A stretch of 64,000 nucleotides of DNA from Sipunculus nudus. Lineage: Eukaryota > Annelida > Sipuncula > Golfingiida > Sipunculidae. The first letter of the stretch is position 1; every line of letters starts with the position of its first letter. The translations under genes were made by a program, and so were the position numbers. The notes under the pieces were generated by a model. It was not told the DNA's origin. It did not search any database and saw only the letters and a list, made by a program, of their open reading frames with translations. Where the stretch lies: assembly GCA_026874595.1 (NCBI GenBank), contig CM049307.1, positions 18,827,079 through 18,891,078 of the forward strand. The letters are read 5' to 3'. Below, in pieces: positions 13,542 through 64,000 of this stretch.

Positions 13542-13583
13542 CATTGTGTGGGTCAGATTTCAACTCCAACAATCACCAAACAG

Positions 13584-14484: not shown

Positions 14485-14916
14485 TTTTCCTCAAGCTTCT
14501 TACATGTTACGAATTTAATGGCAGATCTTTCTGAATTTGACAACAAAATCACAATAATGAGAAGTCATGTTTTCACAAACACTTTTATGTTTGTTCCAAA
14601 CCGCTTATAGGTGCCTATTCCGAAATTAGACGACGTATATTATCCAAAGATAATGCCCCACACCTTACAGATAAGCCAGAAAACGGATTTCTTACTTTAC
14701 ACTAGCTCCCATTTTGTTAATATCCTTATATTTTTAATATGTGGGGGTCCGCCAAATAATGAAAAAAACATTCAACAAGGACATCTGGCGGCAGGTTAGA
14801 CGAACCATTTTCGCAAACGGCGTTTTGCCCATATACCACTAAGCCCCTTCATTTTTCCCTTTAATGGCACATCCGAGATTACTCACAGCTTGTAGATGAA
14901 CAGCTCATACATATAC
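14485..14916. other. Non-coding DNA to the left of the satellite
   Basis: AT-rich sequence with a 62-codon frame at 14611-14799 that resembles nothing known. No repeat or transposon terminus is visible at the satellite border. Confidence 0.5.
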
Positions 14917-15789
14917 GTCATTACGACCATATCAGGATGTACGTACAGTTAATTAAAATGTACACAGAATGAGAGAGAAATCTCAAGTCACTACGACCTT
15001 AGCAGGAAGTACGTACAGTTCATTAAAATGTACACAGAATGAGAGAGAAATCTCAAGTCACTACGACCATAGCAGGAAGTACATACAGTTCATTAACCTG
15101 TACACAGAAGGAGAGAGAAATCTCAAGTCACTACGACCATAGCAGGAAGTACGTACAGTTCATTAAAATGTACACAGAATGAGAGAGAAATCTCAAGTCA
15201 CTACGACCATAGCAGGAAGTACGTACAGTTCATTAATATGTACACAGAATGAGAGAGAAATCTCACGTCACTACGACCTTAGCAGGAAGTACGTACAGTT
15301 CATTAAAATGTACACAGAACGAGAGAGAAATCTCAAGTCACTACGACCATAGCAGGAAGTACGTACAGTTCATTAATATGTGCACAGAATGAGAGAGAAA
15401 TCTCAAGTCACTACGACCTTAGCATGAAGTACGTACAGTTCATTAAAATGTACACAGAATGAGAGAGAAATCTCAAGTCACTACGACCATAGCAGGAAGT
15501 ACGTACAGTTCATTAATATGTACACAGAATGAGAGAGAAATCTCAAGTCACTACGACCTTAGCAGGAAGTACGTACAGTTAATTAAAATGTACACAGAAT
15601 GAGAGAGAAATCTCAAGTCACTACGACCATAGCAGGAAGTACGTACAGTTCATTAATATGTACACAGAATGAGAGAGAAATCTCAAGTCACTACGACCTT
15701 AGCAGGAAGTACGTACAGTTCATTAAAATGTACACAGAACGAGAGAGAAATCTCAAGTCACTACGACCATAGCAGGAAGTACGTACAGT

Positions 15790-18700
15790 TCATTAATATG
15801 TACACAGAAGGAGAGAAAAATCTCAAGTCACTACGACCATAGCAGGAAGTACATACAGTTCATTAACCTGTACACAGAAGGAGAGAGAAATCTCAAGTCA
15901 CTACGACCATAGCAGGAAGTACGTACAGTTCATTCAAATGTACACAGAATGAGAGAGAAATCTCAAGTCACTACGACCATAGCAGGAAGTACGTACAGTT
16001 CATTAATATGTACACAGAATGAGAGAGAAATCTCAAGTCACTACGACCTTAGCAGGAAGTACGTACAGTTCATTAAAATGTACACAGAATGAGAGAGAAA
16101 TCTCAAGTCACTACGACCATAGCAGGAAGTACGTACAGTTCATTAATATGTACACAGAATGAGAGAGAAATCTCAAGTCACTACGACCATAGCAGGAAGT
16201 ACATACAGTTCATTAACCTGTACAACACAGAAGGAGAGAGAAATCTCAAGTCACTACGACCATAGCAGGAAGTACGTACAGTTCATTAAAATGTACACAG
16301 AAGGAGAGAGAAATCTCAAGTCACTACGACCATAGCAGGAAGTACGTACAGTTCATTAATATGTACACAGAATGAGAGAGAAATCTCAAGTCACTACGAC
16401 CTTAGCAGGAAGTACGTACAGTTCATTAAAATGTACACAGAACGAGAGAGAAATCTCAAGTCACTACGACCATAGCAGGAAGTACGTACAGTTCATTAAT
16501 ATGTACACAGAATGAGAGAGAAATCTCAAGTCACTACGACCTTAGCAGGAAGTACGTACAGTTCATTAAAATGTACACAGAATGAGAGAGAAATCTCAAG
16601 TCACTACGACCATAGCAGGAAGTACGTACAGTTCATTAATATGTACACAGAATGAGAGAGAAATCTCAAGTCACTACGACCTTAGCAGGAAGTACGTACA
16701 GTTCATTAAAATGTACACAGAACGAGAGAGAAATCTCAAGTCACTACAACCATAGCAGGAAGTACGTACAGTTCGTTAAAATGTACACAGAACGAGAGAG
16801 AAATCTCAAGTCACTACGACAATAGCAGGAAGTACGTACAGTTCATTAATATGTACACAGAATGAGAGAGAAATCTCAAGTCACTACGACCATAGCAGGA
16901 AGTACGTACAGTTCATTAAAATGTACACAGAATGAGAGAGAAATCTCAAGTCACTACGACCATAGCAGGAAGTACGTACAGTTCATTAATATGTACACAG
17001 AATGAGAGAGAAATCTCAAGTCACTACGACCTTAGCAGGAAGTACGTACAGTTCATTAAAATGTACACAGAACGAGAGAGAAATCTCAAGTCACTACGAC
17101 CATAGCAGGAAGTACGTACAGTTCATTAATATGTACACAGAATGAGAGAGAAATCTCAAGTCACTACGACCTTTGCAGGAAGTACGTACAGTTCATTAAA
17201 ATGTACACAGAATGAGAGAGAAATCTCAAGTCACCACGACCATAGCAGGAAGTACGTACAGTTCATTAATATGTACACAGAATGAGAGAGAAATCTCAAG
17301 TCACTACGACCTTAGCAGGAAGTACGTACAGTTCATTAAAATGTACACAGAATGAGAGAGAAATCTCAAGTCACTACGACCATAGCAGGAAGTACGTACA
17401 GTTCATTAATATGTACACAGAATGAGAGAGAAATCTCAAGTCACTACGACCTTAGCAGGAAGTACGTACAGTTAATTAAAATGTACACAGAATGAGAGAG
17501 AAATCTCAAGTCACTACGACCATAGCAGGAAGTACGTACAGTTCATTAATATGTACACAGAATGAGAGAGAAATCTCAAGTCACTACGACCTTAGCAGGA
17601 AGTACGTACAGTTCATTAAAATGTACACAGAACGAGAGAGAAATCTCAAGTCACTACGACCATAGCAGGAAGTACGTACAGTTCATTAATATGTACACAG
17701 AACGAGAGAGAAATCTCAAGTCACTACGACCATAGCAGGAAGTACATACAGTTCATTAACCTGTACACAGAAGGAGAGAGAAATCTCAAGTCACTACGAC
17801 CATAGCAGGAAGTACGTACAGTTCATTCAAATGTACACAGAATGAGAGAGAAATCTCAAGTCACTACGACCATAGCAGGAAGTACGTACAGTTCATTAAT
17901 ATGTACACAGAATGAGAGAGAAATCTCAAGTCACTACGACCTTAGCAGGAAGTACGTACAGTTCATTAAAATGTACACAGAATGAGAGAGAAATCTCAAG
18001 TCACTACGACCATAGCAGGAAGTACGTACAGTTCATTAATATGTACACAGAATGAGAGAGAAATCTCAAGTCACTACGACCATAGCAGGAAGTACGTACA
18101 GTTCATTATCCTGTACACAGAAGGAGAGAGAAATCTCAAGTCACTACGACCATAGCAGGAAGTACGTACAGTTCATTAAAATGTACACAGAATGAGAGAG
18201 AAATCTCAAGTCACTACGACCATAGCAGGAAGTACGTACAGTTCATTAATATGTACACAGAATGAGAGAGAAATCTCAAGTCACTACGACCTTAGCAGGA
18301 AGTACGTACAGTTCATTAAAATGTACACAGAACGAGAGAGAAATCTCAAGTCACTACGACCATAGCAGGAAGTACGTACAGTTCATTAATATGTACACAG
18401 AATGAGAGAGAAATCTCAAGTCACTACGACCTTAGCAGGAAGTACGTACAGTTCATTAAAATGTACACAGAATGAGAGAGAAATCTCAAGTCACTACGAC
18501 CATAGCAGGAAGTACGTACAGTTCATTAATATGTACACAGAATGAGAGAGAAATCTCAAGTCACTACGACCTTAGCAGGAAGTACGTACAGTTCATTAAA
18601 ATGTACACAGAACGAGAGAGAAATCTCAAGTCACTACGACCATAGCAGGAAGTACGTACAGTTCGTTAAAATGTACACAGAACGAGAGAGAAATCTCAAG

Positions 18701-19350
18701 TCACTACGACCATAGCAGGAAGTACGTACAGTTCATTAATATGTACACAGAATGAGAGAGAAATCTCAAGTCACTACGACCATAGCAGGAAGTACGTACA
18801 GTTCATTAAAATGTACACAGAATGAGAGAGAAATCTCAAGTCACTACGACCATAACAGGAAGTACGTACAGTTCATTAATATGTACACAGAATGAGAGAG
18901 AAATCTCAAGTCACTACGACCTTAGCAGGAAGTACGTACAGTTCATTAAAATGTACACAGAACGAGAGAGAAATCTCAAGTCACTACGACCATAGCAGGA
19001 AGTACGTACAGTTCATTAATATGTACACAGAATGAGAGAGAAATCTCAAGTCACTACGACCTTTGCAGGAAGTACGTACAGTTCATTAAAATGTACACAG
19101 AATGAGAGAGAAATCTCAAGTCACCACGACCATAGCAGGAAGTACGTACAGTTCATTAATATGTACACAGAATGAGAGAGAAATCTCAAGTCACTACGAC
19201 CCTAGCAGGAAGTACGTACAGTTCATTAAAATGTACACAGAATGAGAGAGAAATCTCAAGTCACTACGACCATAGCAGGAAGTACGTACAGTTCATTAAT
19301 ATGTACACAGAATGAGAGAGAAATCTCAAGTCACTACGACCTTAGCAGGA
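15790..19350 (+). repeat. 27-monomer (about 1.89-kb) higher-order repeat, two copies
   Basis: Rare monomer variants recur at a spacing of 1,890 bp (27 x 70). CTTTGCAGGA is at 17171 and 19061, GTTCGTTAAA at 16771 and 18661, and CATTCAAATG at 15931 and 17824 (+3 bp, caused by a 73-bp monomer at about 16217). Outer borders are approximate. Confidence 0.8.
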
Positions 19351-22300
19351 AGTACGTACAGTTCATTAAAATGTACACAGAATGAGAGAGAAATCTCAAG
19401 TCACTACGACCATAACAGGAAGTACGTACAGTTCATTAATATGTCCACAGAATGAGAGAGAAATCTCAAGTCACTTCGACCTTAGCAGGAAGTACGTACA
19501 GTTCATTAATATGTACACAGAATGAGAGAGAAATCTCAAGTCATTACGACCATAGCAGGAAGTACGTACAGTTCATTAATATGTACACAGAATGAGAGAT
19601 AAATCTCAAGTCACTACGACCATAGCAGGAATTACGTACAGTTCATTAAAATGTACACAGAATGAGAGAGAAATCTCAAGTCACTACGACCATAGCAGGA
19701 AGTACCTACAGTTCATTAATATGTACACAGAATGAGAGAGAAAACTCAAGTCACTACGACCATAGCAGGAAGAACGTACAGTTCATTAAAATGTACACAG
19801 TTAGAGAGAGAAATCGCAAGTCACTACGACCATAGCAAGAAGTACGTACAGTTTATAAAAATGTACACATAATGAGAGAGAAATCTCAAGTCACTACGAC
19901 CATAGCAGGAAGTACGTACAGTTCATTAATATGTATACAGAACGAGAGCGAAATCTGAAGTCACTACGACCATAGCTGGAAGTACGTGCAGTTCATTAAT
20001 ATGTACACAGAACGACAGCGAAATCTCAAGTCACTACGACCATAGTAGGAAGTACGTACAGTTCATTAATATGTACACAGAATGAGAGAGAAATCTCAAG
20101 TCACTACAACCTTAGCAGGAAGTACGTACAGTTCATTAAAATGTACACAGAACGAGAGAGAAATCTCAAGTCACTACGACCATAGCAGGAAGTACGTACA
20201 GTTCATTAATATGTACACAGAATGAGAGAGAAATCTCAAGTCACTACGACCTTAGCAGGAAGTACGTACAGTTCATTAAAATGTACACAGAATGAGAGAG
20301 AAATCTCAAGTCACTACGACCATAGCAGGAAGTACGTACAGTTCATTAATATGTACACAGAATGAGAGAGAAATCTCAAGTCACTACGACCTTAGCAGGA
20401 AGTACGTACAGTTCATTAAAATGTACACAGAATGAGAGAGAAATCTCAAGTCACTACGACCATAGCAGGAAGTACGTACAGTTCATTAATATGTACACAG
20501 AATGAGAGAGAAATCTCAAGTCACTACGACCTTAGCAGGAAGTACGTACAGTTCATTAAAATGTACACAGAACGAGAGAGAAATCTCAAGTCACTACGAC
20601 CATAGCAGGAAGTACGTACAGTTCGTTAAAATGTACACAGAACGAGAGAGAAATCTCAAGTCACTACGACCATAGCAGGAAGTACGTACAGTTCATTAAT
20701 ATGTACACAGAATGAGAGAGAAATCTCAAGTCACTACGACCATGGCAGGAAGTACGTACAGTTCATTAAAATGTACACAGAATGAGAGAGAAATCTCAAG
20801 TCACTACGACCATAGCAGGAAGTACGTACAGTTCATTAATATGTACACAGAATGAGAGAGAAATCTCAAGTCACTACGACCTTAGCAGGAAGTACGTACA
20901 GTTCATTAAAATGTACACAGAACGAGAGCGAAAAATCTAGTCACTACGACCATAGCAGGAAGTACATACAGTTCATTATCCTGTACACAGAAGGAGAGAG
21001 AAATCTCAAGTCACTACGACCATAGCAGGAAGTACGTACAGTTCATTAAAATGTACACAGAATGAGAGAGAAATCTCAAGTCACTACGACCATAGCAGGA
21101 AGTACGTACAGTTCATTAATATGTACACAGAATGAGAGAGAAATCTCAAGTCACTACGACCTTAGCAGGAAGTACGTACAGTTCATTAAAATGTACACAG
21201 AACGAGAGAGAAATCTCAAGTCACTACGACCATAGCAGGAAGTACGTACAGTTCATTAATATGTACACAGAATGAGAGAGAAATCTCAAGTCACTACGAC
21301 CTTAGCAGGAAGTACGTACAGTTCATTAAAATGTACACAGAATGAGAGAGAAATCTCAAGTCACTACGACCATAGCAGGAAGTACGTACAGTTCATTAAT
21401 ATGTACACAGAATGAGAGAGAAATCTCAAGTCACTACGACCTTAGCAGGAAGTACGTACAGTTCATTAAAATGTACACAGAACGAGAGAGAAATCTCAAG
21501 TCACTACGACCATAGCAGGAAGTACGTACAGTTCGTTAAAATGTACACAGAACGAGAGAGAAATCTCAAGTCACTACGACCATAGCAGGAAGTACGTACA
21601 GTTCATTAATATGTACACAGAATGAGAGAGAAATCTCAAGTCACTACGACCATAGCAGGAAGTACGTACAGTTCATTAAAATGTACACAGAATGAGAGAG
21701 AAATCTCAAGTCACTACGACCATAGCAGGAAGTACGTACAGTTCATTAATATGTACACAGAATGAGAGAGAAATCTCAAGTCACTACGACCTTAGCAGGA
21801 AGTACGTACAGTTCATTAAAATGTACACAGAACGAGAGAGAAATCTCAAGTCACTACGACCATAGCAGGAAGTACGTACAGTTCATTAATATGTACACAG
21901 AATGAGAGAGAAATCTCAAGTCACTACGACCTTTGCAGGAAGTACGTACAGTTCATTAAAATGTACACAGAATGAGAGAGAAATCTCAAGTCACCACGAC
22001 CATAGCAGGAAGTACGTACAGTTCATTAATATGTACACAGAATGAGAGAGAAATCTCAAGTCACTACGACCCTAGCAGGAAGTACGTACAGTTCATTAAA
22101 ATGTACACAGAATGAGAGAGAAATCTCAAGTCACTACGACCATAGCAGGAAGTACGTACAGTTCATTAATATGTACACAGAATGAGAGAGAAATCTCAAG
22201 TCACTACGACCTTAGCAGGAAGTACGTACAGTTCATTAAAATGTACACAGAATGAGAGAGAAATCTCAAGTCACTACGACCATAACAGGAAGTACGTACA

Positions 22301-23840
22301 GTTCATTAATATGTCCACAGAATGAGAGAGAAATCTCAAGTCACTTCGACCTTAGCAGGAAGTACGTACAGTTCATTAATATGTACACAGAATGAGAGAG
22401 AAATCTCAAGTCATTACGACCATAGCAGGAAGTACGTACAGTTCATTAATATGTACACAGAATGAGAGAGAAATCTCAAGTCACTACGACCATAGCAGGA
22501 ATTACGTACAGTTCATTAAAATGTACACAGAATGAGAGAGAAATCTCAAGTCACTACGACCATAGCAGGAAGTACGTACAGTTCATTAATATGTACACAG
22601 AATGAGAGAGAAAACTCAAGTCACTACGACCATAGCAGGAAGAACGTACAGTTCATTAAAATGTACACAGTTAGAGAGAGAAATCGCAAGTCACTACGAC
22701 CATAGCAAGAAGTACGTACAGTTTATAAAAATGTACACATAATGAGAGAGAAATCTCAAGTCACTACGACCACAGCAGGAAGTACGTACAGTTCATTAAT
22801 ATGTATACAGAACGAGAGCGAAATCTGAAGTCACTACGACCATAGCTGGAAGTACGTGCAGTTCATTAATATGTACACAGAACGACAGCGAAATCTCAAG
22901 TCACTACGACCATAGTAGGAAGTACGTACAGTTCATTAATATGTACACAGAATGAGAGAGAAATCTCAGGTCACTACAACCTTAGCAGGAAGTACGTACA
23001 GTTCATTAAAATGTACACAGAACGAGAGAGAAATCTCAAGTCACTACGACCATAGCAGGAAGTACGTACAGTTCATTAATATGTACACAGAATGAGAGAG
23101 AAATCTCAAGTCACTACGACCTTAGCAGGAAGTACGTACAGTTCATTAAAATGTACACAGAATGAGAGAGAAATCTCAAGTCACTACGACCATAGCAGGA
23201 AGTACGTACAGTTCATTAATATGTACACAGAATGAGAGAGAAATCTCAAGTCACTACGACCTTAGCAGGAAGTACGTACAGTTCATTAAAATGTACACAG
23301 AATGAGAGAGAAATCTCAAGTCACTACGACCATAGCAGGAAGTACGTACAGTTCATTAATATGTACACAGAATGAGAGAGAAATCTCAAGTCACTACGAC
23401 CTTAGCAGGAAGTACGTACAGTTCATTAAAATGTACACAGAACGAGAGAGAAATCTCAAGTCACTACGACCATAGCAGGAAGTACGTACAGTTCGTTAAA
23501 ATGTACACAGAACGAGAGAGAAATCTCAAGTCACTACGACCATAGCAGGAAGTACGTACAGTTCATTAACCTGTACACAGAATGAGAGAGAAATCTCAAG
23601 TCACTACGACCATGGCAGGAAGTACGTACAGTTCATTAAAATGTACACAGAATGAGAGAGAAATCTCAAGTCACTACGACCATAGCAGGAAGTACGTACA
23701 GTTCATTAATATGTACACAGAATGAGAGAGAAATCTCAAGTCACTACGACCTTAGCAGGAAGTACGTACAGTTCATTAAAATGTACACAGAACGAGAGCG
23801 AAAAATCTAGTCACTACGACCATAGCAGGAAGTACGTACA
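18100..23840 (+). repeat. 41-monomer (2,870-bp) higher-order repeat, two copies
   Basis: Markers recur exactly 2,870 bp apart: CATTATCCTG at 18104 and 20974, CTTTGCAGGA at 19061 and 21931, TTAGAGAGAG at 19801 and 22671, GTTCGTTAAA at 20621 and 23491, and GAGCGAAAAATCTAG at about 20925 and 23795. A further partial copy continues to about 26000 with the spacing changed to 2,660 bp (38 monomers), after part of the block was replaced. Confidence 0.85.
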
Positions 23841-26800
23841 GTTCATTAATATGTACACAGAATGAGAGAGAAATCTCAAGTCACTACGACCTTAGCAGGA
23901 AGTACGTACAGTTCATTAAAATGTACACAGAATGAGAGAGAAATCTCAAGTCACCACGACCATAGCAGGAAGTACGTACAGTTCATTAATATGTACACAG
24001 AATGAGAGAGAAATCTCAAGTCACTACGACCATAGCAGGAAGTACGTACAGTTCATTAATATGTCCACAGTATGAGAGAGAAATCTCAAGTCACTTCGAC
24101 CTTAGCAGGAAGTACGAACAGTTCATTAATATGTACACAGAATGAGAGAGAAATCTGAAGTCACTACGACCATAGCAGGAAGTACGTACAGTTCATTAAA
24201 ATGTACACAGAATGAGAGAGAAATCTCAAGTCACTACGACCTTAGCAGGAAGTACGTACAGTTCATTAAAATGTACACAGAATGAGAGAGAAATCTCAAG
24301 TCACTACGACCATAGCAGGAAGTACGTACAGTTCATTAATATGTACACAGAATGAGAGAGAAATCTCAAGTCACTACGACCTTAGCAGGAAGTACGTACA
24401 GTTCGTTAAAATGTACACAGAACGAGAGAGAAATCTCAAGTCACTACGACCATAGCAGGAAGTACGTACAGTTCATTAAAATGTACACAGAACGAGAGAG
24501 AAATCTCAAGTCACTACGACCATAGCAGGAAGTACGTACAGTTCATTAATATGTACACAGAATGAGAGAGAAATCTCAAGTCACTACGACCTTTGCAGGA
24601 AGTACGTACAGTTCATTAAAATGTACACAGAATGAGAGAGAAATCTCAAGTCACCACGACCATAGCAGGAAGTACGTACAGTTCATTAATATGTACACAG
24701 AATGAGAGAGAAATCTCAAGTCACTACGACCCTAGCAGGAAGTACGTACAGTTCATTAAAATGTACACAGAATGAGAGAGAAATCTCAAGTCACTACGAC
24801 CATAGCAGGAAGTACGTACAGTTCATTAATATGTACACAGAATGAGAGAGAAATCTCAAGTCACTACGACCTTAGCAGGAAATACGTACAGTTCATTAAA
24901 ATGTACACAGAATGAGAGAGAAATCTCAAGTCACTACGACCATAACAGGAAGTACGTACAGTTCATTAATATGTCCACAGAATGAGAGAGAAATCTCAAG
25001 TCACTTCGACCTTAGCAGGAAGTACGTACAGTTCATTAATATGTACACAGAATGAGAGAGAAATCTCAAGTCATTACGACCACAGCAGGAAGTACGTACA
25101 GTTCATTAATATGTACACAGAATGAGAGATAAATCTCAAGTCACTACGACCATAGCAGGAAGTACGTACAGTTCATTAAAATGTACACAGAATGAGAGAG
25201 AAATCTCAAGTCACTACGACCATAGCAGGAAGTACGTACAGTTCATTAATATGTACACAGAATGAGAGAGAAAACTCAAGTCACTACGACCATAGCAGGA
25301 AGAACGTACAGTTCATTAAAATGTACACAGTTAGAGAGAGAAATCGCAAGTCACTACGACCATAGCAAGAAGTACGTACAGTTTATAAAAATGTACACAT
25401 AATGAGAGAGAAATCTCAAGTCACTTCGACCATAGCAGGAAGTACGTACAGTTCATTAATCTGTATACAGAACGAGAGCGAAATCTGAAGTCACTACGAC
25501 CATAGCTGGAAGTACGTGCAGTTCATTAATATGTACACAGAACGACAGCGAAATCTCAAGTCACTACGACCATAGTAGGAAGTACGTACAGTTCATTAAT
25601 ATGTACACAGAATGAGAGAGAAATCTCAAGTCACTACGACCTTAGCAGGAAGTACGTACAGTTCATTAAAATGTACACAGAACGAGAGAGAAATCTCAAG
25701 TCACTACGACCATAGCAGGAAGTACGTACAGTTCATTAATGTGTACACAGAATGAGAGAGAAATCTCAAGTCACTACGACCTTAGCAGGAAGAACGTACA
25801 GTTCATTAAAATGTACACAGAATGAGAGAGAAATCTCAAGTCACTACGACCATAGCAGGAAGTACGTACAGTTCATTAATATGTACACAGAATGAGAGAG
25901 AAATCTCAAGTCACTACGACCTTAGCAGGAAGTACGTACAGTTCATTAAAATGTACACAGAATGAGAGAGAAATCTCAAGTCACTACGACCATAGCAGGA
26001 AGTACGTACAGTTCATTAATATGTACACAGAATGAGAGAGAAATCTCAAGTCACTACGACCTTAGCAGGAAGTACGTACAGTTCATTAAAATGTACACAG
26101 AACGAGAGAGAAATCTCAAGTCACTACGACCATAGCATCAAGTACGTACAGTTCGTTAAAATGTACACAGAACGAGAGAGAAATCTCAAGTCACTACGAC
26201 CATAGCAGGAAGTACGTACAGTTCATTAATATGTACACAGAATGAGAGAGAAATCTCAAGTCACTACGACCATGGCAGGAAGTACGTACAGTTCATTAAA
26301 ATGTACACAGAATGAGAGAGAAATCTCAAGTCACTACGACCATAGCAGGAAGTACGTACAGTTCATTAATATGTACACAGAATGAGAGAGAAATCTCAAG
26401 TCACTACGACCTTAGCAGGAAGTACGTACAGTTCATTAAAATGTACACAGAACGAGAGAGAAATCTCAAGTCACTACGACCATAGCAGGAAGTACGTACA
26501 GTTCATTAATATGTACACAGAATGAGAGAGAAATCTCAAGTCACTACGACCTTAGCAGGAAGTACGTACAGTTCATTAAAATGTACACAGAATGAGAGAG
26601 AAATCTCAAGTCACCACGACCATAGCAGGAAGTACGTACAGTTCATTAATATGTACACAGAATGAGAGAGAAATCTCAAGTCACTACGACCATAGCAGGA
26701 AGTACGTACAGTTCATTAATATGTCCACAGTATGAGAGAGAAATCTCAAGTCACTTCGACCTTAGCAGGAAGTACGAACAGTTCATTAATATGTACACAG

Positions 26801-27429
26801 AATGAGAGAGAAATCTGAAGTCACTACGACCATAGCAGGAAGTACGTACAGTTCATTAAAATGTACACAGAATGAGAGAGAAATCTCAAGTCACTACGAC
26901 CTTAGCAGGAAGTACGTACAGTTCATTAAAATGTACACAGAATGAGAGAGAAATCTCAAGTCACTACGACCATAGCAGGAAGTACGTACAGTTCATTAAT
27001 ATGTACACAGAATGAGAGAGAAATCTCAAGTCACTACGACCTTAGCAGGAAGTACGTACAGTTCGTTAAAATGTACACAGAACGAGAGAGAAATCTCAAG
27101 TCACTACGACCATAGCAGGAAGTACGTACAGTTCATTAATATGTACAAAGAATGAGAGAGAAATCTCAAGTCACTACGACCATAGCAGGAAGTACGTACA
27201 GTTCATTAAAATGTACACAGAATGAGAGAGAAATCTCAAGTCACTACGACCATAGCAGGAAGTACGTACAGTTCATTAATATGTACACAGAATGAGAGAG
27301 AAATCTCAAGTCACTACGACCTTAGCAGGAAGTACGTACAGTTCATTAATATGTACACAGAATGAGAGAGAAATCTCAAGTCACTACGACCTTAGCAGGA
27401 AGTACGTACAGTTCATTAAAATGTACACA

Positions 27430-37600: not shown

Positions 37601-37719
37601 ACCATAACAGGAAGTACGTACATTTCATTAATATGTATATAGAACGAGAGCGAAATCTGAAGTCACTACGACCATAGCTGGAAGTACATACAGTTCATTA
37701 AAATGTACACAGAACGAGA

Positions 37720-50600: not shown

Positions 50601-53600
50601 TCACTACGACCATAGCTGGAAGTACGTACAGTTCATTAATATGTACACAGAACGACAGCGAAATCTCATGTCACTACGACCATAGCAGGAAGTACGAACA
50701 GTTCATTAATATGTACACGGAATGAGAGAGAAATCTCAAGTCACTACGACCATAGCAGGAAGTACGTACAGTTCATTAATATGTACACAGAATGAGAGAG
50801 AAATCTCAAGTCACTATGACCATAGCAGGAAGTACGTACAGTTCATTAAAATGTACACAGAACGAGAGAAATCTCAAGTCACTACGACCATAGCAGGAAG
50901 TACGTACAGTTCATTAAAATGTACACAGAACGAGAGAGAAATCTCAAGTCACTACGACCATAGCAGGAAGTACGTACAGTTCATTAATATGTACACAGAA
51001 TAAGAGAGAAATCTCAAGTCACTACGACCATAGCAGGAAGTACGTACAGTTCATTAATATGTACACAGAATGAGAGAGAAATCTCAAGTCACTACGACCT
51101 TAGCAGGAAGTACGTACAGTTCATTAATCTGTACACAGAAGGAGAGAGAAATCTCAAGTCACTACGACCATAGCAGGAAGTACGTACAGTTCATTAATCT
51201 GTACACAGAAGGAGAGAGAAATCTCAAGTCACTACGACCATAGCAGGAAGTACGTACAGTTCATTAATATGTACACAGAATGAGAGAGAAATCTCAGGTC
51301 ACTACGACCATAGCAGGAAGTACGTACAGTTCATTAAAATGTACACAGAATGAGAGAGAAATCTCAGGTCACTACGACCATGGCAGGAAGACGTACAGTT
51401 CATTAATATGTCCACAGAATGAGAGAGAAATCTCAAGTCACTACGACCATAGCAGGAAGTACGTACAGTTCATTAATATGTACACAGAATGAGAGAGAAA
51501 TCTCAAGTCACTACGACCTTAGCAGGAATATCGTACAGTTCATTAAAATGTACACAGAATGAGAAAGAAATCTCAAGTCACTACGACCATAGCAGAAAGT
51601 ACGTACAGTTCATTAATATGTACACAGAACGAGAGAGAAATCTCAAGTCACTACGACCATAGCAGGAAGTACGTACAGTTCATTAATATGTACACAGAAT
51701 GAGAGAGAAATCTCAAGTGACCACGACCATAGCAGGAAGTACGTATAGTTCATTAATATGTACACAGAACGAGAGAGAAATCTCAAGTCACTACGACCAT
51801 AGCAGGAAGTACGTACAGTTCATTAAAATGTACACAGAACGAGAAAGAAATCTCAAGTCACTACGACCATAGCAGGAAGTACGTACAGTTCATTAATATG
51901 TACACAGAACGAGAGAGAAATCTCAAGTCACTACGACCATAGCAGGAAGTACGTACAGTTCATTAATATGTACACAGAATGAGAGAGAAATCTCAAGTGA
52001 CCACGACCATAGCAGGAAGTACGTACAGTTCATTAATATGTCCACAGAATGAGAGAGAAATCTCAAGTCACTACGACCATAGCAGGAAGTACGTACAGTT
52101 CATTAATATGTCCACAGAATGAGAGAGAAATCTCAAGTCACTACGACCATAGCAGGAAGTACGTACAGTTCATTAATATGTACACAGAACGAGAGAGAAA
52201 TCTCAAGTCACTACGACCATAGCAGGAAGTACGTACAGTTCATAAATATGTACACAGAATGAGAGAGAAATCTCAAGTCACTACGACCATAGCAGGAAGT
52301 ACGTACAGTTCATTAATATGTCCACAGAATGAGAGAGAAATCTCAAGTCACTACGACCATAGCAGGAAATACGTACAGTTCATTAATATGTACACAGAAC
52401 GAGAGAGAAATCTCAAGTCACTACGACCATAGCAGGAAGTACGTACAGTTCATTAAAATGTACACATAACGAGAGAGAAATCTCAAGTCACTACGACCAT
52501 AGCAGGAAGTACGTACAGTTTATTAATATGTACACAGAATGAGAGAGAAATCTCAAGTCACTACGACCATAGCAGGAAGTACGTACAGTTCATTAATATG
52601 TACACAGAATGAGAGAGAAATCTCAGGTCAATACGACCATAGCAGGAAGTACGTACAGTTCATTAATATGTTCACAGAATGAGAGAGAAAGCTCAAGTCA
52701 CTACGACCATAGCAGGAAGTACGTACAGTTCATTAATATGTACACAGAACGAGAGAGAAATCTCAAGTCACTACGACCATTGCAGGAAGTACGTACAGTT
52801 CATTAATATTTACACAGAATGAGAGAGAAATCTCAAGTCACTACGACCATAGCAGGAAGTACGTACAGTTCATTAATATGTACACAGAACGAGAGAGAAA
52901 TCTCAGGTCACTACGACCATTGCAGGAAGTATGTACAGTTCATTAATATTTACACAGAATGAGAGAGAAATCTCAAGTCACTACGACCATAGCAGGAAGT
53001 ACGTACATTTCATTAATATGTACACAGAATGAGAGAGAAATCTCAAGTCACTACGACCTTAGCAGGAAGTACGTACAGTTCATTAAAATGTACACAGAAT
53101 GAGAGAGAAATCTCAGGTCACTACGACCATAGCAGGAAGTACGTAAAAATCATTAATATGTACACAGAACGAGAGAGAAATCTCAAGTCACTACGACCAT
53201 AGCAAGAAGTACGTACAGTTTATAAAAATGTACATATAATGAGAGAGAAATCTCAAGTCACTACGACCATAACAGGAAGTACGTACATTTCATTAATATG
53301 TATATAGAACGAGAGCGAAATCTGAAGTCACTACGACCATAGCTGGAAGTACGTACAGTTCATTAAAATTTACACAGAACGAGAAAGAAATCTCAAGTCA
53401 CTACGACCATAGCAGGAAGTACGTACAGTTCATTAATATGTACACAGAATGAGAGAGAAATCTCAAGTCACTACGACCTTAGCAGGAAGTACGTACAGTT
53501 CATTAAAATGTACACAGAATGAGAGAGAAATCTCAGGTCACTACGACCATAGCAGGAAGTACGTAAAAATCATTAATATGTACACAGAACGAGAGAGAAA

Positions 53601-56600
53601 TCTCAAGTCACTACGACCATAGCAAGAAGTACGTACAGTTTATAAAAATGTACACATAATGAGAGAGAAATCTCAAGTCACTACGACCATAACAGGAAGT
53701 ACGTACATTTCATTAATATGTATATAGAACGAGAGCGAAATCTGAAGTCACTACGACCATAGCTGGAAGTACATACAGTTCATTAAAATGTACACAGAAC
53801 GAGAGCGAAATCTCAAGTCACTACGACCATAGCAGGAAGTACGTACAGTTCATTAAAATTTACACAGAACGAGAAAGAAATCTCAAGTCACTACGACCAT
53901 AGCAGGAAGTACGTACAGTTCATTAATATGTACACAGAATGAGAGAGATATCTCAAGTCACTACGACCATAGCAGGAAGTACGTGCAGTTCATTATTATG
54001 TACACAGAACGAGAGAGAAATCTCAAGTCACTACGACCATTGCAGGAAGTACGTACAGTTCAATAAAATGTACACAGAACGAGAAAGAAATCTCAAGTCA
54101 CTACGACCATAGCAGGTAGTACGTACAGTTCATTAATATGTACACAGAATGAGAGAGAAATCTCAAGTCATCACGACCATAGCAGGAAGTACGTAAAAAT
54201 CATTAATATGTACACAGAACGAGAGAGAAATCTCAAGTCACTACGACCATAGCAGGAAGTACCTACAGTTCATTAATTTGTCCACAGAATGAGAGAGAAA
54301 TCTCAGGTCACTACGACCATAGCAGGAAGTACGTACAGTTCATTAATATGTACACAGAACGAGAGAGAAATCTCAAGTCACTACGACCATAGCAGGAAGT
54401 ACGTACAGTTCATTAATATGTACACAGAATGAGAGAGAAATCTCAGGTCACTACGACCATGGCAGGAAGACGTACAGTTCATTAATATGTCCACAGAATG
54501 AGAGAGAAATCTCAAGTCACTACGACCATAGCAGGAAGTACGTACAGTTCATTAATATGTACACAGAATGAGAGAGAAATCTCAAGTCACTACGACCTTA
54601 GCAGGAATATCGTACAGTTCATTAAAATGTACACAGAATGAGAAAGAAATCTCAAGTCACTACGACCATAGCAGAAAGTACGTACAGTTCATTAATATGT
54701 ACACAGAATGAGAGAGAAATCTCAAGTCACTTCGACCTTAGCAGGAAGTACGTACAGTTCATTAATATGTACACAGAATGAGAGAGAAATCTCAAGTCAC
54801 TACGACCATAGCAGGAAGTACGTACAGTTCATTAAAATGTACACAGAACGAGAGAGAAATCTCAAGTCACTACGACCATATCAGGAAGTACGTACAGTTC
54901 ATTAATATGTACACAGAATGAGAGAGAAATTTCAAGTCACTACGACCATAGCAGGAAGCACGTACAGTTCATTAAAATGTACACAGAATGAGAGAGAAAT
55001 CTCAAGTCACTACGACCATAGCAGGAAGTACGTACAGTTCATTAAAATGTACACATAACGAGAGAGAAATCTCAAGTCACTACGACCATAGCAGGAAGTA
55101 CGTACAGTTTATTAATATGTACACAGAATGAGAGAGAAATCTCAAGTCACTACGACCATAGCAGGAAGTACGTACAGTTCATTAATATGTACACAGAATG
55201 AGAGAGAAATCTCAGGTCAATACGACCATAGCAGGAAGTACGTACAGTTCATTAATATGTACACAGAATGAGAGAGAAATCTCAAGTCACTACGACCTTA
55301 GCCGGAAGTACGTACAGTTCATTAAAATGTACACAGAATGAGAGAGAAATCTCAGGTCACTACGACCTTAGCCGGAAGTACGTACAGTTCATTAAAATGT
55401 ACACAGAATGAGAGAGAAATCTCAAGTCACTACGACCATAGCAGGAAGTACGTACAGTTCATTAATATGTACACAGAACGAGAGAGAAATCTCAAGTCAC
55501 TACGACCATAGCAGGAAGTACGAACAGTTCATTAATATGTACACAGAATGAGAGAGAAATCTCAAGTCACTACGACCTTAGCAGGAAGTACGTACAGTTC
55601 ATTAATATGTACACAGAATGAGAGAGAAATCTCAAGTCTACTACGACCTTAGCAGGAAGTACGTACAGTTCATTAATATGTACACAGAATGAGAGAAAAA
55701 TCTCAAGTCTACTACGACCATAGCAGGAAGTACGTACAGTTCATTAAAATGTACACAGAACGAGAGAGAAATCTCAAGTCACTACGACCATAGCAGGAAG
55801 TATGTACAGTTCATTAATATTTACACAGAATGAGAGAGAAATCTCAAGTCACTACGACCATAGCAGGAAGTACGTACATTTCATTAATATGTACACAGAA
55901 TGAGAGAGAAATCTCAAGTCACTACGACCTTAGCAGGAAGTACGTACAGTTCATTAATATGTACACAGAACGAGAGAGAAATCTCAAGTCACTACGACCA
56001 TAGCAGGAAGTACGTACAGTTCATTAAAATGTACGCAGAACGAGAAAGAAATCTCAAGTCGCTACGACCATAGCAGGAAGTACGTACAGTTCATTAATAT
56101 GTACACAGAATGAGAGAGAAATCTCAAGTCACTACGACCATAGCAGGAAGTACGTACAGTTCATTAATATGTACACAGAACGAGAGAGAAATCACAAGTC
56201 ACTACGACCATAGCAGGAAGTACGTACAGTTCATTAATATGTACACAGAATGAGAGAGAAATCTCAAGTGACCACGACCATAGCAGGAAGTACGTACAGT
56301 TCATTAATATGTACACAGAATGAGAGAGAAATCTCAAGTCACTACGACCATAGCAGGAAGTACGTACAGTTCATTAATATGTACACAGAATGAGAGAGAA
56401 ATCTCAAGTCACTACGACCAAAGCAGGAAGTACGTACAGTTCATTAATATGTCCACAGAATGAGAGAGTAATCTCAAGTCACTACGACCATAGCAGGAAG
56501 TACGTACAGTTCATTAATATGTCCACAGAATGAGAGAGAAATCTCAAGTCACTACGACCATAGCAGGAAGTACGTACAGTTCATTAATATGTACACAGAA

Positions 56601-56690
56601 CGAGAGAGAAATCTCAAGTCACTACGACCATAGCAGGAAGTACGTACAGTTCATTAATATGTACACAGAATGAGAGAGAAATCTCGAACG
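41651..56690 (+). repeat. Large tandem unit II of the satellite (about 15.0 kb)
   Basis: Near-identical copy of unit I. Differences I could see are scattered single bases (for example about 26138, 30571/46451 and 31801/47681), three 210-bp gains relative to unit I (near 43.8, 51.1 and 55.8 kb), and the lack of the 1,259-bp duplication. To its right the sequence changes to another mix of variants at about 56700. Confidence 0.9.
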
Positions 56691-59600
56691 ACCATAGCAG
56701 GAAGTACGTACAGTTCATTAATATGTCCACAGAATGAGAGAGAAATCTCAGGTCACTACGACCATAGCCGGAAGTACGTAAAAATCATTAATATGTACAC
56801 AGAACGAGAGAGAAATCTCAAGTCACTTCGACCATAGCAGGAAGTATGTTCAGTTCATTAAAATGTACACAGAACGAGAGAGAAATCTCAAGTCACTACG
56901 ACCATAGCAGGAAGTACGTACAGTTCATAAATATGTACACAGAACGAGAGAGAAATCTCAAGTCACTACGACCATAGCAGGAAGTACGTACAGTTCATTA
57001 AAATGTCCACAGAACGAGAGAGAAATCTCAAGTCACTACGACCATAGCAGGAAGTACGTACAGTTCATTAATATGTACACAGAATGAGAGAGAAATCTCA
57101 AGTCACTACGACCTTAGCAGGAATTACGTACAGTTCATTAAAATGTACACAGAATGAGAGAGAAATCTCAAGTCACCACGACCATAGCAGGAAGTACGTA
57201 CAGTTCATTAATATGTACACAGAATGAGAGAGAAATCTCAAGTCACTACGACCTGAGCAGGAAGTACGTACAGTTTATTAAAATGTACACAGAATGAGAG
57301 AGAAATCTCAAGTCACTACGACCATAGCAGGAAGTACGTACAGTTCATTAATATGTACACAGAATGAGAGAGAAATCTCAAGTCACTACGACCTTAGCAG
57401 GAAGTACGTACAGTTCATTAAAATGTACACAGAATGAGAGAGAAATCTCAAGTCACTACGACCATAGCAGGAAGTACGTACAGTTCATTAATATGTCCAC
57501 AGTATGAGAGAGAAATCTCAAGTCACTTCGACCTTAGCAGGAAGTACGTACAGTTTATTAAAATGTACACAGAATGAGAGAGAAATCTCAAGTCACTACG
57601 ACCATAGCAGGAAGTACGTACAGTTCATTAATATGTACACAGAATGAGAGAGAAATCTCAAGTCACTACGACCTTAGCAGGAAGTACGTACAGTTCATTA
57701 AAATGTACACAGAATGAGAGAGAAATCTCAAGTCACTACGACCATAGCAGGAAGTACGTACAGTTCATTAATATGTCCACAGTATGAGAGAGAAATCTCA
57801 AGTCACTTCGACCTTAGCAGGAAGTACGAACAGTTCTTTAATATGTACACAGAATGAGAGAGAAATCTGAAGTCACTACGACCATAGCAGGAAGTACGTA
57901 CAGTTCATTAAAATGTACACAGAACGAGAGAGAAATCTCAAGTCACTACGACCATAGCAGGAAGTACGTACAGTTCATTAATATGTACACAGAATGAGAG
58001 ATAAATCTCAAGTCACTACGACCATAGCAGGAAGTACGTACAGTTCATTAAAATGTACACAGAATGAGAGAGAAATCTCAAGTCACTACGACCATAGCAG
58101 GAAGTACGTACAGTTCATTAATATGTACACAGAATGAGAGAGAAATCTCAAGTCACTACGACCATAGCAGGAAGTTCGTACAGTTCATTAAAATGTACAC
58201 AGATCGAGAGAGAAATCTCAAGTCACTACGACCATAGCAAGAAGTACGTACAGTTTATAAAAATGTACACATAATGAGAGAGAAATCTCAAGTCACTACG
58301 ACCATAGCAGGAAGTACGTACAGTTCATTAATATGTATACAGAACGAGAACGAAATCTCAGGTCACTACGACCATAGCAGGAAGTACGTACAGTTCATTA
58401 ATATGTACAAAGAACGACAGCGAAATCTCAAGTGACCACGACCATAACAGGAAGTACGTACAGTTCATTAATATGTACACAGAACGAGAGAGAAATCTCA
58501 AGTCACTACGACCATAGCAGGAAGTACCTACAGTTCATTAATATGTCCACAGAATGAGAGAGAAATCTCAGGTCACTACGACCATAGCAGGAAGTACGTA
58601 CAGTTCATTAATATGTACACAGAACGAGAGAGAAATCTCAAGTCACTACGACCATAGCAGGAAGTACGTACAGTTCATTAATATGTACACAGAATGAGAG
58701 AGAAATCTCAGGTCACTACGACCATAGCAGGAAGACGTACAGTTCATTAATATGTCCACAGAATGAGAGAGAAATCTCAAGTCACTACGACCATAGCAGG
58801 AAGTATGTACAGTTCATTAATATGTACACAGAATGAGAGAGAAATCTCAAGTCACTACGACCTTAGCAGGAATCTCGTACAGTTCATTAAAATGTACACA
58901 GAATGAGAAAGAAATCTCAAGTCACTACGACCATAGCAGAAAGTACGTACAGTTCATTAATATGTCCACAGAATGAGAGAGAAATCTCAAGTCACTTCGA
59001 CCTTAGCAGGAAGTACGTACAGTTCATTAATATGTACACAGAATGAGAGAGAAATCTCAAGTCACTACGACCATAGCAGGAAGTACGTACAGTTCATTAA
59101 AATGTACACAGAACGAGAGAGAAATCTCAAGTGACCACGACCATAGCAGGAAGTACGTACAATTCATTAATATGTACACAGAACGAGAGAGAAATCTCAA
59201 GTCACTACGACCATAGCAGGAAGTACCTACAGTTCATTAATATGTCCACAGAATGAGAGAGAAATCTCAGGTCACTACGACCATAGCAGGAAGTACGTAC
59301 AGTTCATTAATATGTACACAGAACGAGAGAGAAATCTCAAGTCACTACGACCATAGCAGGAAGTACGTACAGTTCATTAATATGTACACAGAATGAGAGA
59401 GAAATCTCAGGTCACTACGACCATAGCAGGAAGACGTACAGTTCATTAATATGTCCACAGAATGAGAGAGAAATCTCAAGTCACTACGACCATAGCAGGA
59501 AGTACGTACAGTTTATTAATATGTCCACAGAATGAGAGAGAAATCTCAAGTCACTACGACCATAGCAGGAAGTACGTACAGTTCATTAATATGTACACAG

Positions 59601-62600
59601 AACGAGAGAGAAATCTCAAGTCACTACGACCATTGCAGGAAGTATGTACAGTTCATTAATATTTACACAGAATGAGAGAGAAATCTCAAGTCACTACGAC
59701 CATAGCAGGAAGTACGTACAGTTCATTAATATGTACACAGAATGAGAGAGAAATCTCAAGTCACTACGACCTTAGCAGGAAGTACGTACAGTTCATTAAA
59801 ATGTACACAGAATGAGAGAGAAATCTCAGGTCACTACGACCATAGCAGGAAGTACGTAAAAATCATTAATATGTACACAGAACGAGAGAGAAATCTCAAG
59901 TCACTACGACCATAGCAAGAAGTACGTACAGTTTATAAAAATGTACACATAATGAGAGAGAAATCTCAAGTCACTACGACCATAACAGGAAGTACGTACA
60001 TTTCATTAATATGTATATAGAACGAGAGCGAAATCTGAAGTCACTACGACCATAGCTGGAAGTACATACAGTTCATTAAAATGTACACAGAACGAGAGAG
60101 AAATCTCAAGTCACTACGACCATAGCAGGAAGTACGTACAGTTCATTAAAATTTACACAGAACGAGAAAGAAATCTCAAGTCACTACGACCATAGCAGGA
60201 AGTACGTACAGTTCATTAATATGTACACAGAATGAGAGAGAAATCTCAAGTCACTACGACCATAGCAGGAAGTACGTACAGTTCATTAATATGTACACAG
60301 AATGAGAGAGAAATCTCAAGTCACTACGACCATAGCAGGAAGTACGTACAGTTCATTAATATGTCCACAGAATGAGAGAGAAATCTCAAGTCACTACGAC
60401 CATAGCAGGAAGTACGTACAGTTCATTAATATGTCCACAGAATGAGAGAGAAATCTCAAGTCACTACGACCATAGCTGGAAGTACGTACAGTTCATTAAT
60501 ATGTACACAGAACGAGAGAGAAATCTCAAGTCACTACGACCATAGCAGGAAGTACGTACAGTTCATAAATATGTACACAGAATGAGAGAGAAATCTCAAG
60601 TCACTACGACCATAGCAGGAAGTACGTACAGTTCATTAATATGTCCACAGAATGAGAGAGAAATCTCAAGTCACTACGACCATAGCAGGAAATACGTACA
60701 GTTCATTAATATGTACACAGAACGAGAGAGAAATCTCAAGTCACTACGACCATAGTAGGAAGTACGTACAGTTCATTAAAATGTACACAGAACGAGAGAG
60801 AAATCTCAAGTCACTACGACCATAGCAGGAAGTACCTACAGTTTATTAATATGTACACAGAATGAGAGAGAAATCTCAAGTCACTACGACCATAGCAGGA
60901 AGTACGTACAGTTCATTAATATGTCCACAGAATGAGAGAGTAATCTCAAGTCACTACGACCATAGCAGGAAGTACGTACAGTTCATTAATATGTCCACAG
61001 AATGAGAGAGTAATCTCAAGTCACTACGACCATAGCAGGAAGTACGTACAGTTCATTAATATGTACACAGAACGAGAGAGAAATCTCAAGTCACTACGAC
61101 CATAGCAGGAAGTACGTACAGTTCATTAATATGTACACAGAATGAGAGAAATCTCAAGTCACTACGACCATAGCAGGAAGTACGTACAGTTCATTAATAT
61201 GTACACAGAATGAGAGAGAAATCTCAGGTCACTACGACCATAGCCGGAAGTACGTAAAAATCATTAATATGTACACAGAACGAGAGAGAAATCTCAAGTC
61301 ACTTCGACCATAGCAGGAAGTATGTTCAGTTCATTAAAATGTACACAGAACGAGAGAGAAATCTCAAGTCACTACGACCATAGCAGGAAGTACGTACAGT
61401 TCATAAATATGTACACAGAACGAGAGAGAAATCTCAAGTCACTACGACCATAGCAGGAAGTACGTACAGTTCATTAAAATGTACACAGAACGAGAGAGAA
61501 ATCTCAAGTCACTACGACCATAGCAGGAAGTACGTACAGTTCATTAATATGTACACAGAATGAGAGAGAAATCTCAAGTCACTACGACCATAGCAGGAAG
61601 TACGTACAGTTCATTAATATGTACACAGAATGAGAGAGAAATCTCAGGTCACTACGACCATAGCAGGAAGTACGTACAGTTCATTAATATGTACACAGAA
61701 TGGGAGAGAAATCTCAGGTCACTACGACCATAGCAGGAAGTACGTACAGTTCATTAATATGTACACAGAACGAGAGAGAAATCTCAAGTCACTACGACCA
61801 TTGCAGGAAGTACGTACAGTTCATTAATATTTACACAGAATTCGAGAGAAATCTCAAGTCACTACGACCATAGCAGGAAGTACGTACAGTTCATTAATAT
61901 GTACACAGAATGAGAGAGAAATCTCAAGTCACTACGACCTTAGCAGGAAGTACGTACAGTTCATTAAAATGTACACATAATGAGAGAGAAATCTCAGGTC
62001 ACTACGACCATAGCAGGAAGTACGTACAGTTCAATAATATGTACACAGAACGAGAGAGAAATCTCAAGTCACTACGACCATAGCAGGAAGTACGTACAGT
62101 TCATTAATATGTACACAGAATGAGAGAGAAATCTCAAGTCACTACGACCATAGCAGGAAGTACGAACAGTTCATTAACATGTACACAGAATGAGAGAGAA
62201 ATCTCAAGTCACTACGACCTTAGCAGGAAGTACGTACAGTTCATTAATATGTACACAGAATGAGAGAGAAATCTCAAGTCACTACGACCATAGCAGGAAG
62301 TACGTACAGTTCATTAAAATGTACACAGAATGAGAGAGAAATCTCAAGTCACTACGACCATAGCAGGAAGTACGTACAGTTCATTAATATGTACACAGAA
62401 TGAGAGAGAAATCTCAAGTCACTACGACCATAGCAGGAAGTACCTACAGTTCATTAATATGTACACAGAATGAGAGAGAAATCTCAAGTCACTACGACCA
62501 TAGCAGGAAGTACCTACAGTTCATTAATATGTACACAGAATGAGAGAGAAATCTCAAGTCACTACGACCATAGCAGGAAGTACCTACAGTTCATTAATAT

Positions 62601-63746
62601 GTACACAGAATGAGAGAGAAATCTCAAGTCACTACGACCATAGCAGGAAGTACCTACAGTTCATTAATATGTACACAGAATGAGAGAGAAATCTCAAGTC
62701 ACTACGACCATAGCAGGAAGTACGTACAGTTCATTAAAATGTACACAGAACGAAAGAGAAATCTCAAGTCACTACGACCATAGCAGGAAGTACGTACAGT
62801 TCATTAATATGTAAACAGAATGAGAGAGAAATCTCAAGTCACTACGACCATAGCAGGAAGTACGTACAGTTCATTAATATGTACACAGAATGAGAGAGAA
62901 ATCTCAAGTCACTTCGACCATAGCAGGAAGTATGTTCAGTTCATTAATATGTCCACAGAATGAGAGAGAAATCTCAAGTCACTTCGACCATAGCAGGAAG
63001 TACGTACAGTTCATTAATATGTACACAGAATGAGAGAGAAATCTCAAGTCACTACGACCATAGCAGGAAGTACGTACAGTTCATTAATATGTTCACAGAA
63101 TGAGAGAGAAATCTCAAGTCACTACGACCATAGCAGGAAGTACCTACAGTTCATTAATATGTCCACAGAATGAGAGAGAAATCTCAAGTCACTACGACCA
63201 TAGCAGGAAGTACGTACAGTTCATTAATATGTCCACAGAATGAGTGAGAAATCTCAAGTCACTTCGACCATAGCAGGAAGTATGTTCAGTTCATCAATAT
63301 GTCCACAGAATGAGAGAGAAATCTCAAGTCACTTCGACCATAGCAGGAAGTACGTACAGTTCATTAATATGTACACCGAATGAGAGAGAAATCTCAAGTC
63401 ACTTCGACCATAGCAGGAAGTACGTACAGTTCATTAATATGTACACAGAATGAGAGAGAAATCTCAAGTCACTACGACCATAGCAGGAAGTACGTACAGT
63501 TCATTAATATGTCCACAGAATGAGAGAGAAATCTCAAGTCACTACGACCATAGCAGGAAGTACGTACAGTTCATTAATATGTCCACAGAATGAGAGAGAA
63601 ATCTCAAGTCACTTCGACCATAGCAGGAAGTATGTTCAGTTCATTAATATGTCCACAGAATGAGAGAGAAATCTCAAGTCACTACGACCATAGCAGGAAG
63701 TACGTGCAGTTCATTAATATGTCCACAGAATGAGAAAGAAATCTCA

Positions 63747-64000
63747 TACATGATCATGAACACGATTAAGTAACATGGAGGCAAAATATATCGGTATTTG
63801 AACTGTCACCTTGGAAAAAGGCCAATGCCAATACCCATATTTTCACATTACTACTTAATCGTTTCCAATAAACTTGATTTTCTTTGCGAATCATGTGGTG
63901 GGACGAGGTGTTCCATTATGTCATACACAGCCAGACTTTGCAAAGTACGTAGGTCGAAACCAATATACTTATTCAGCCATACATATTTATTGATATTTAC
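63747..64000. other. Unique AT-rich flank right of the satellite
   Basis: Sequence changes abruptly from satellite to non-repetitive DNA after ATCTCA at 63746. No gene or transposon end is recognisable in the 254 bases available. Confidence 0.6.

What the first reader, a model, noticed from the sequence alone, without database searches (positions are those of the whole stretch)
14917..63746. About 700-copy, 70-bp satellite running uninterrupted for 48.8 kb
The monomer is unusually short and its phase is kept for almost 49 kb, in one orientation and without a single transposon insertion, although the left flank is full of transposon fossils. That suggests active homogenisation. I do not recognise the monomer as a named satellite. 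Two monomers make 140 bp, close to the DNA wrapped in a nucleosome core, which fits a chromatin role, but that is inference.
Basis: partly seen in the sequence, partly recalled or inferred. Interest (0 to 1): 0.7.

Follow-up and report, generated by a model that had tools for sequence, protein, structure and literature searches.

The report
Young 70-bp satellite DNA array
This is a real but ordinary block of animal satellite DNA, 698 copies of a 70-base unit, which looks as if it grew by copying long stretches of many units at once, with no sign in the sequence of a special chromatin job.

Summary
Window 14,917-63,746 is one head-to-tail array of 698 monomers of 70 bp (669 of 698 exactly 70 bp), mean 96.9% identity to the consensus, largest insertion 3 bp. 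Both ends lie in the window, so as assembled it is a bounded 48.8-kb block.

The array is zoned. Monomers 0-159 form a loose 140-bp alternating dimer. A ~15-kb stretch is present twice, nearly head to tail (26,190-41,649 and 41,856-56,685; 11 substitutions in 14,201 aligned bp, plus copy-number differences of 3, 3, 18 and 3 monomers). The last 100 monomers show no such order. In monomers 0-597, 0 of 597 neighbouring pairs are identical, where local shuffling predicts about 28. Simulation fits growth by blocks averaging ten or more monomers with few single-unit steps. Recent block turnover would itself explain the missing transposons.

The chromatin idea gets no support from sequence: no 10-bp phasing in the consensus, no protected motif, no CENP-B box, no compensatory hairpin changes.

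I file it as a new member of a known kind. Precedent: the 72-bp satellite of the beetle Palorus subdepressus, in 144-bp dimers. Host species, genome-wide abundance and Repbase/Dfam match were not testable. The 15-kb duplication might be an assembly artefact.

The parts
14917..63746 (+). Satellite array, 698 head-to-tail 70-bp monomers (strand as given by TRF; no coding or transcription strand known)
14917..26119 (.). Zone 1, monomers 0-159: loose 140-bp dimer alternation; 64 of 160 monomers are the 'ATT' type (columns 13/41/54) and only 1 adjacent pair is ATT-ATT, against 25.2 expected by shuffling (lowest of 2000 shuffles 15)
18140..23809 (.). Nested duplication of 40 monomers (46-85 and 87-126), 99.75% identical
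26190..41649 (.). First copy of the large internal duplication (monomers 161-381)
41856..56685 (.). Second copy (monomers 385-596); 203 aligned monomers, 14,201 bp, 11 substitutions and one 1-bp indel, plus copy-number differences of 3, 3, 18 and 3 monomers
37732..40249 (.). 18-monomer tandem duplication in the first copy only (monomers 326-343 and 344-361; 3 differences)
56752..63746 (.). Zone 3, monomers 598-697: monomeric, 7 of 99 neighbouring pairs identical, no alternation
14904..14912 (+). CTCATACAT, left copy of a 9-bp direct repeat that brackets the array; possible insertion footprint, weak
63743..63751 (+). CTCATACAT, right copy; its first four bases are also the end of the last monomer

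Best explanation
A non-coding satellite DNA array in an animal genome that is kept homogeneous by repeated out-of-register duplication and deletion of long blocks of monomers (around ten or more at a time, occasionally hundreds). Shown: near-identical blocks at many spacings, a ~15-kb near-tandem duplication in the assembly, and no identical neighbours in the first 598 monomers. Inferred: the enzymatic route is unequal sister-chromatid exchange or break-induced replication. Fast turnover would also remove or outrun transposon insertions, so no chromatin function is needed to explain the clean 49 kb. My best guess for function is none beyond being passive satellite DNA.
For: Array and monomers. 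197 distinct monomer sequences in 698. One search lists 32 pairs of runs of six or more consecutive identical monomers, the three longest at spacings of 224, 230 and 227 monomers. The 15-kb copies differ by 11 substitutions in 14,201 bp but by four whole-monomer-number changes. 0 of 597 identical neighbours in monomers 0-597; local-shuffle means of 14.0, 6.5 and 7.4 for the three zones, none of 500 shuffles as low in any of them. In forward simulation, mean blocks of 10, 20 or 40 monomers with 0% or 5% single-monomer events reach whole-array lag-1 identity of 0.010 or less in 3 to 21 of 30 runs per setting; the eight settings with 20% or 50% single events reach it in 1 of 240 runs, and the four settings with mean block 5 in 0 of 120. 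The first eight and last eight monomers are little degraded (93-99% identity to consensus).
Against: Zero identical neighbours in 597 is rarer than the model gives: exactly zero occurred in 3 of 480 runs of 600 monomers and 2 of 144 runs of 400 monomers. The simulation is simple: infinite alleles, equal gain and loss, no similarity-dependent pairing, limited run length, and lag 11-30 identity only roughly matched (0.034-0.048 against 0.045 observed). In the settings with mean block 20 or 40 it gives less identity at lag 2 (0.020-0.039) than observed (0.052). None of the 32 listed run pairs lies in the last 100 monomers, so zone 3 has another history. The duplication could be an assembly error, which would remove the strongest single exhibit though not the smaller blocks or the neighbour statistic.
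Confidence: 0.8

Rival explanations
1. The ~15-kb duplication is a false duplication: two haplotypes (or a mis-resolved repeat graph) joined head to tail by the assembler. The satellite is real but about a third shorter.
For: The copies lie nearly end to end and differ as two alleles of an unstable array might, few substitutions but several monomer-number indels.
Against: 0.08% substitution difference is low for two haplotypes of a typical invertebrate (recalled expectation). Smaller near-identical blocks of about 8 to 40 monomers at spacings of 9 to 68 monomers exist in the first 600 monomers, so block duplication is needed anyway.
Confidence: 0.25
2. Centromeric or heterochromatic satellite under selection for chromatin packaging (two monomers per nucleosome core).
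For: 140-bp dimer zone at the left; an A/B dimer is also the simplest centromeric alpha-satellite arrangement (PMC8997354 passages).
Against: No AA/TT/TA periodicity near 10 bp in the consensus (power below the shuffle mean at 10.0 and 11.67 bp). No CENP-B box in the array (motif recalled). 7 columns without a substitution among the distinct monomers, where Poisson scatter of the 113 variant states would give about 14, so no protected motif. The array is 48.8 kb with other sequence on both sides, though only 254 bases of it on the right. The clear dimer zone is 160 of 698 monomers. Chromatin marks were not testable.
Confidence: 0.12
3. Transposon-borne repeats: the array grew from tandem units inside a mobile element (as with oyster Helentron repeats) or from a circular DNA that inserted with a 9-bp target duplication.
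For: CTCATACAT on both sides, 14,904-14,912 and 63,743-63,751; a shared 9-mer or longer turned up in 0.65% of random left-flank pairs of the same sizes.
Against: The 9-mer was looked for after seeing the sequence, and four of its bases belong to the last monomer. Otherwise left 13,900-14,930 and the right flank share only short matches of chance level, direct or inverted (best E 0.40). No significant monomer-like fragment in the flanks (best E 2.9). In the oyster passage the longest element-borne array has 89 monomers (PMC8268682). No search for Helitron-specific end motifs was made.
Confidence: 0.15
4. A transcribed RNA or ribozyme repeat, or a coding repeat.
For: Consensus monomer folds slightly better than shuffles as RNA (z -2.04, 7 of 200 shuffles as good).
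Against: Of 236 changed cells at the 15 predicted pairs, 215 break the pair, 21 keep it by a one-sided change and 0 are compensatory. No Rfam family at gathering score in 1-20,000, and the best of two matches in 15,192-15,900 has E 1.3. No hammerhead core motif (motif recalled). At least 642 stops in each of six frames, longest open stretch 130 codons.
Confidence: 0.03

Closest known systems
72-bp pericentromeric satellite of Palorus subdepressus
   Same: Monomer of nearly the same length; two variant clades alternating as a dimer (144 bp there, 140 bp here in zone 1). Source: passage in PMC8122249.
   Different: That satellite is 20% of the genome, on all 20 chromosomes, with T2A5T octanucleotides and 22-bp inverted-repeat units; no sequence was compared here, the dimer here is regional, and the genome share is unknown.
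Alpha-satellite A/B dimers and higher-order repeats
   Same: Neighbours differ while units further apart match; nested block duplications (PMC8122249 and PMC8997354 passages).
   Different: Longer monomers (171 bp, recalled), far greater monomer divergence, CENP-B boxes, much larger arrays; here 70 bp, 95% mean identity, no CENP-B box.
Oyster (Crassostrea gigas) satellites, e.g. CgiSat01 standalone array of 232 monomers, about 40 kb
   Same: Standalone array of similar length in an invertebrate (PMC8268682 passage).
   Different: 164-166 bp monomers tied to Helitron elements, and that array held an assembly gap; no element ends seen here.
Trypanosoma brucei 70-bp repeats (recalled, no call)
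   Same: Unit length only.
   Different: Different sequence character and host (recalled); the BEL/Pao element in the flank points to an animal.

Membership tests
Satellite DNA (as a class) | Long uninterrupted head-to-tail array of a non-coding unit | tested here: met
   698 units over 48,830 bp, stops in all six frames
Satellite DNA (as a class) | Concerted evolution: high monomer identity with variants shared across the array | tested here: met
   94.7% mean pairwise identity; 197 distinct forms, 77 of them seen once
Satellite DNA (as a class) | High genome-wide abundance, several arrays | not testable with these tools
   No genome held for the window
Higher-order-repeat satellite | Regular multimer repeated along the whole array | tested here: not met
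   Dimer alternation strong in monomers 0-159, weaker in 160-597 (27 against 41.5 and 27 against 40.8 adjacent ATT pairs, no clear lag-2 excess), absent in 598-697
Centromeric satellite | CENP-A chromatin / primary constriction | not testable with these tools
   Needs ChIP or FISH
Centromeric satellite of the CENP-B type | CENP-B box | tested here: not met
   0 matches on either strand of the array; motif recalled
Known named satellite family | Sequence match to Repbase/Dfam | not testable with these tools
   Libraries not on hand; six monomer strings in the paper library gave 0 papers
Hammerhead-ribozyme satellite | Hammerhead core / Rfam match | tested here: not met
   Motif absent from the array; Rfam tested on 1-20,000 at gathering score and 15,192-15,900 by E-value
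Helitron/Helentron-borne repeat | Element ends flanking the repeats | tested here: inconclusive
   Only 254 bp of right flank; flanks compared with each other only, best E 0.40; no search for Helitron end motifs

The most novel reading that the evidence does not exclude
The absence of identical neighbours (0 of 597) is more than a by-product of block copying: pairs of identical adjacent 70-bp units are actively lost, or a two-unit (140-bp) functional dimer like the alpha-satellite A/B pair was selected, and the array preserves this zone, its 15-kb amplified descendants and a separate monomeric edge in order.
Probability: 0.1. Interest if true: 0.5.

Novelty: new member of a known kind. Interest (0 to 1): 0.25.

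Why it matters
As a satellite it is ordinary. Its value is as a complete, bounded array in which the size of the copying steps can be estimated: by monomer order, growth went mainly by blocks of many units, not one unit at a time. If reads confirm the 15-kb duplication, the ratio of four copy-number changes to 11 substitutions gives a direct relative rate of array turnover.

Tried and rejected
Monomer looked for in print: six strings from both strands, 0 papers. Exact 26-base pattern in viral contigs and prokaryote genome contigs, 0; phages and plasmids by distant blastn with a 420-base query, no match. These collections are not animal genomes, so the misses say little.

'70-bp' plus mollusc plus satellite plus monomer: 0 papers. 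The crayfish paper that came up for 70 bp concerns ~70-bp sub-repeats inside a 664-bp satellite (PMC7859515 passages): not a match in kind; sequences not compared.

A 35-bp period reported by TRF at 25,071-25,178 (57% matches) was not taken up. tRNA search: none, bacterial settings.

Nucleosome phasing, a protected box, hairpin conservation, coding potential and ribozyme were tested and not supported. The RNA fold alone leaned weakly the other way (z -2.04).

Local homogenisation by distance: weak. Mean monomer distance is lowest at lag 2 (3.44), 3.65 at lags 5-10 and again 3.65 at lags above 400, so homogenisation is not simply local.

The idea that the three 3-monomer differences (210 bp, 20 helical turns at 10.5 bp) reflect nucleosome spacing was dropped: lag 3 shows no excess similarity. 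The extra triples in the second copy are not exact copies of their neighbours, so they look more like losses from the first copy.

A first simulation with 12 runs per setting was badly calibrated for the 8-monomer setting and was replaced.

Full report
OBSERVATION. A cyclic alignment to the consensus split it into 698 monomers. Of these, 669 are exactly 70 bp and mean identity to the consensus is 96.9%, lowest 90%; 34 carry any indel and the largest insertion is 3 bp, so no transposon sits in it. Both boundaries are sharp: the first eight and last eight monomers are 93-99% like the consensus, with other DNA on both sides, 14,916 bases on the left and 254 on the right. No whole genome is held for this window, so copy number elsewhere is unknown.

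INTERNAL STRUCTURE. The 698 monomers comprise 197 distinct sequences, the commonest with 113 copies and 77 seen once. Two stretches of about 15 kb, monomers 161-381 (26,190-41,649) and 385-596 (41,856-56,685), are near-copies (coordinates). Over 203 aligned monomers and 14,201 bp they show 10 single-base differences, plus one monomer pair (239/466) that I read as one substitution and a 1-bp indel (the script counted that pair as 9, giving its printed total of 19). They also differ by four whole-monomer-number changes: 3, 3, 18 and 3. The 18-monomer difference is an in-register tandem duplication inside the first copy with 3 differences; the three triples are not exact copies of their neighbours. 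Smaller near-identical blocks exist at other spacings, for example monomers 46-85 against 87-126 at 99.75%. None of the 32 run pairs listed lies in the last 100 monomers.

NEIGHBOURS. In monomers 0-597 not one of 597 adjacent pairs is identical. Shuffling monomers within blocks of 20 predicts means of 14.0, 6.5 and 7.4 for the three zones, and none of 500 shuffles in any of the three was as low. In monomers 598-697, 7 of 99 adjacent pairs are identical, above the shuffle mean of 3.4. Because the middle zones are copies of each other, these are not 597 independent pairs; in monomers 0-383 alone the count is 0 of 383 with a local-shuffle mean of 20.3. In monomers 0-159 the commonest three-site type alternates: adjacent pairs of that type number 1 against 25.2 expected, and pairs two apart 47 against 25.1 (2000 shuffles). 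In the two middle zones adjacent pairs of the type are fewer than expected (27 against 41.5, 27 against 40.8) without a clear excess two apart; in the last 100 monomers there is no deficit (32 against 29.8). So the first quarter is a loose 140-bp dimer, the middle keeps a weaker trace, and the right end has none.

MECHANISM. A forward simulation of block duplication, deletion and mutation, roughly calibrated to the observed identity at lags 11-30, was run 30 times at each of 16 settings. Whole-array lag-1 identity of 0.010 or less, the observed value, was reached in 15, 18 and 21 of 30 runs with mean blocks of 10, 20 and 40 and no single-monomer events; in 3, 5 and 9 of 30 with 5% single events. 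Over all four block sizes it was reached in 1 of 120 runs with 20% single events and 0 of 120 with 50%. Mean blocks of 5 never reached it (0 of 120). Exact zero, as in monomers 0-597, occurred in 3 of 480. The array therefore most likely grew mainly by multi-monomer blocks. Unequal exchange and break-induced replication are both in print as models, the second proposed for nested higher-order repeats (PMC8997354, passages). I cannot separate the two. A recently re-copied array is expected to be free of transposons without any special protection (inference).

FUNCTION TESTS. The consensus has no excess AA/TT/TA power near 10 bp. The distinct monomers carry 113 variant states spread over the unit and 7 columns without any, where Poisson scatter would leave about 14; each of the 13 ten-base windows examined has 8-10 variable columns. 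There is no CENP-B box and no hammerhead core (both motifs recalled). The RNA fold of the consensus is slightly better than shuffles (z -2.04), the DNA fold is not (z -1.00), and of 236 changed cells at predicted pairs over 195 distinct aligned rows none is compensatory. CpG is less depleted in the array (observed/expected 0.863) than in the left flank (0.67). A specific chromatin, RNA or coding role has no clear sequence support, though chromatin marks themselves were not testable.

SURROUNDINGS. The left flank holds remains of a BEL/Pao retrotransposon on the minus strand: DUF5641 at 2,389-2,871 (E 4.1e-17) and Peptidase_A17 at 4,170-4,487 (E 1.7e-14). These were 2 matches among 20 of the 32 open stretches scanned. 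A pair of direct repeats near 1,876-2,033 and 7,977-8,118, 71-82% alike, fits its long terminal repeats. BEL/Pao elements are known from animals (recalled), which makes the host an animal; I could not name it. A 9-bp direct repeat CTCATACAT brackets the array; random flank pairs share 9 or more bases in 0.65% of draws, but I found it after looking, and part of it is monomer sequence.

COMPARISON. Review passages say most satellite units are either nucleosome-sized or 5-10 bp, but also describe a 72-bp satellite in 144-bp alternating dimers in Palorus subdepressus (PMC8122249, passages). Oyster satellites range from 21 to 3,287 bp and include a standalone array of 232 monomers, about 40 kb, with an assembly gap (PMC8268682, passages). 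So neither unit size nor array size is exceptional.

VERDICT. Real, cleanly delimited, and ordinary: a young satellite array with a readable history of block copying. The chief caution is that the 15-kb duplication may be an assembly artefact.

Noticed in passing
window 1876-8118: Decayed BEL/Pao LTR retrotransposon, minus strand, with DUF5641 and Peptidase_A17 matches in separate open stretches and a 71-82% identical direct-repeat pair as likely LTRs.
   Followed up: partly
window 8188-8760: Reads like the end of a CR1-like LINE reverse transcriptase (motif recalled); the open stretch 8188-8439 gave no Pfam match.
   Followed up: partly
window 14904-14912 and 63743-63751: CTCATACAT on both sides of the array, a possible target-site duplication.
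   Followed up: partly
window 40810-41715 and 55636-56751: Both 15-kb copies share rare indel monomers (extra T in two neighbours, and a 6-bp loss around a monomer junction), good markers for checking the duplication in reads.
   Followed up: no
window 13322-13353: Exact tandem pair of a 16-bp unit, GAGGTCGTTTCTATTC.
   Followed up: no
window 14917-63746: CpG is less depleted in the array (observed/expected 0.863 against 0.67 in the left flank), which may hint at low germline methylation or simply youth.
   Followed up: no
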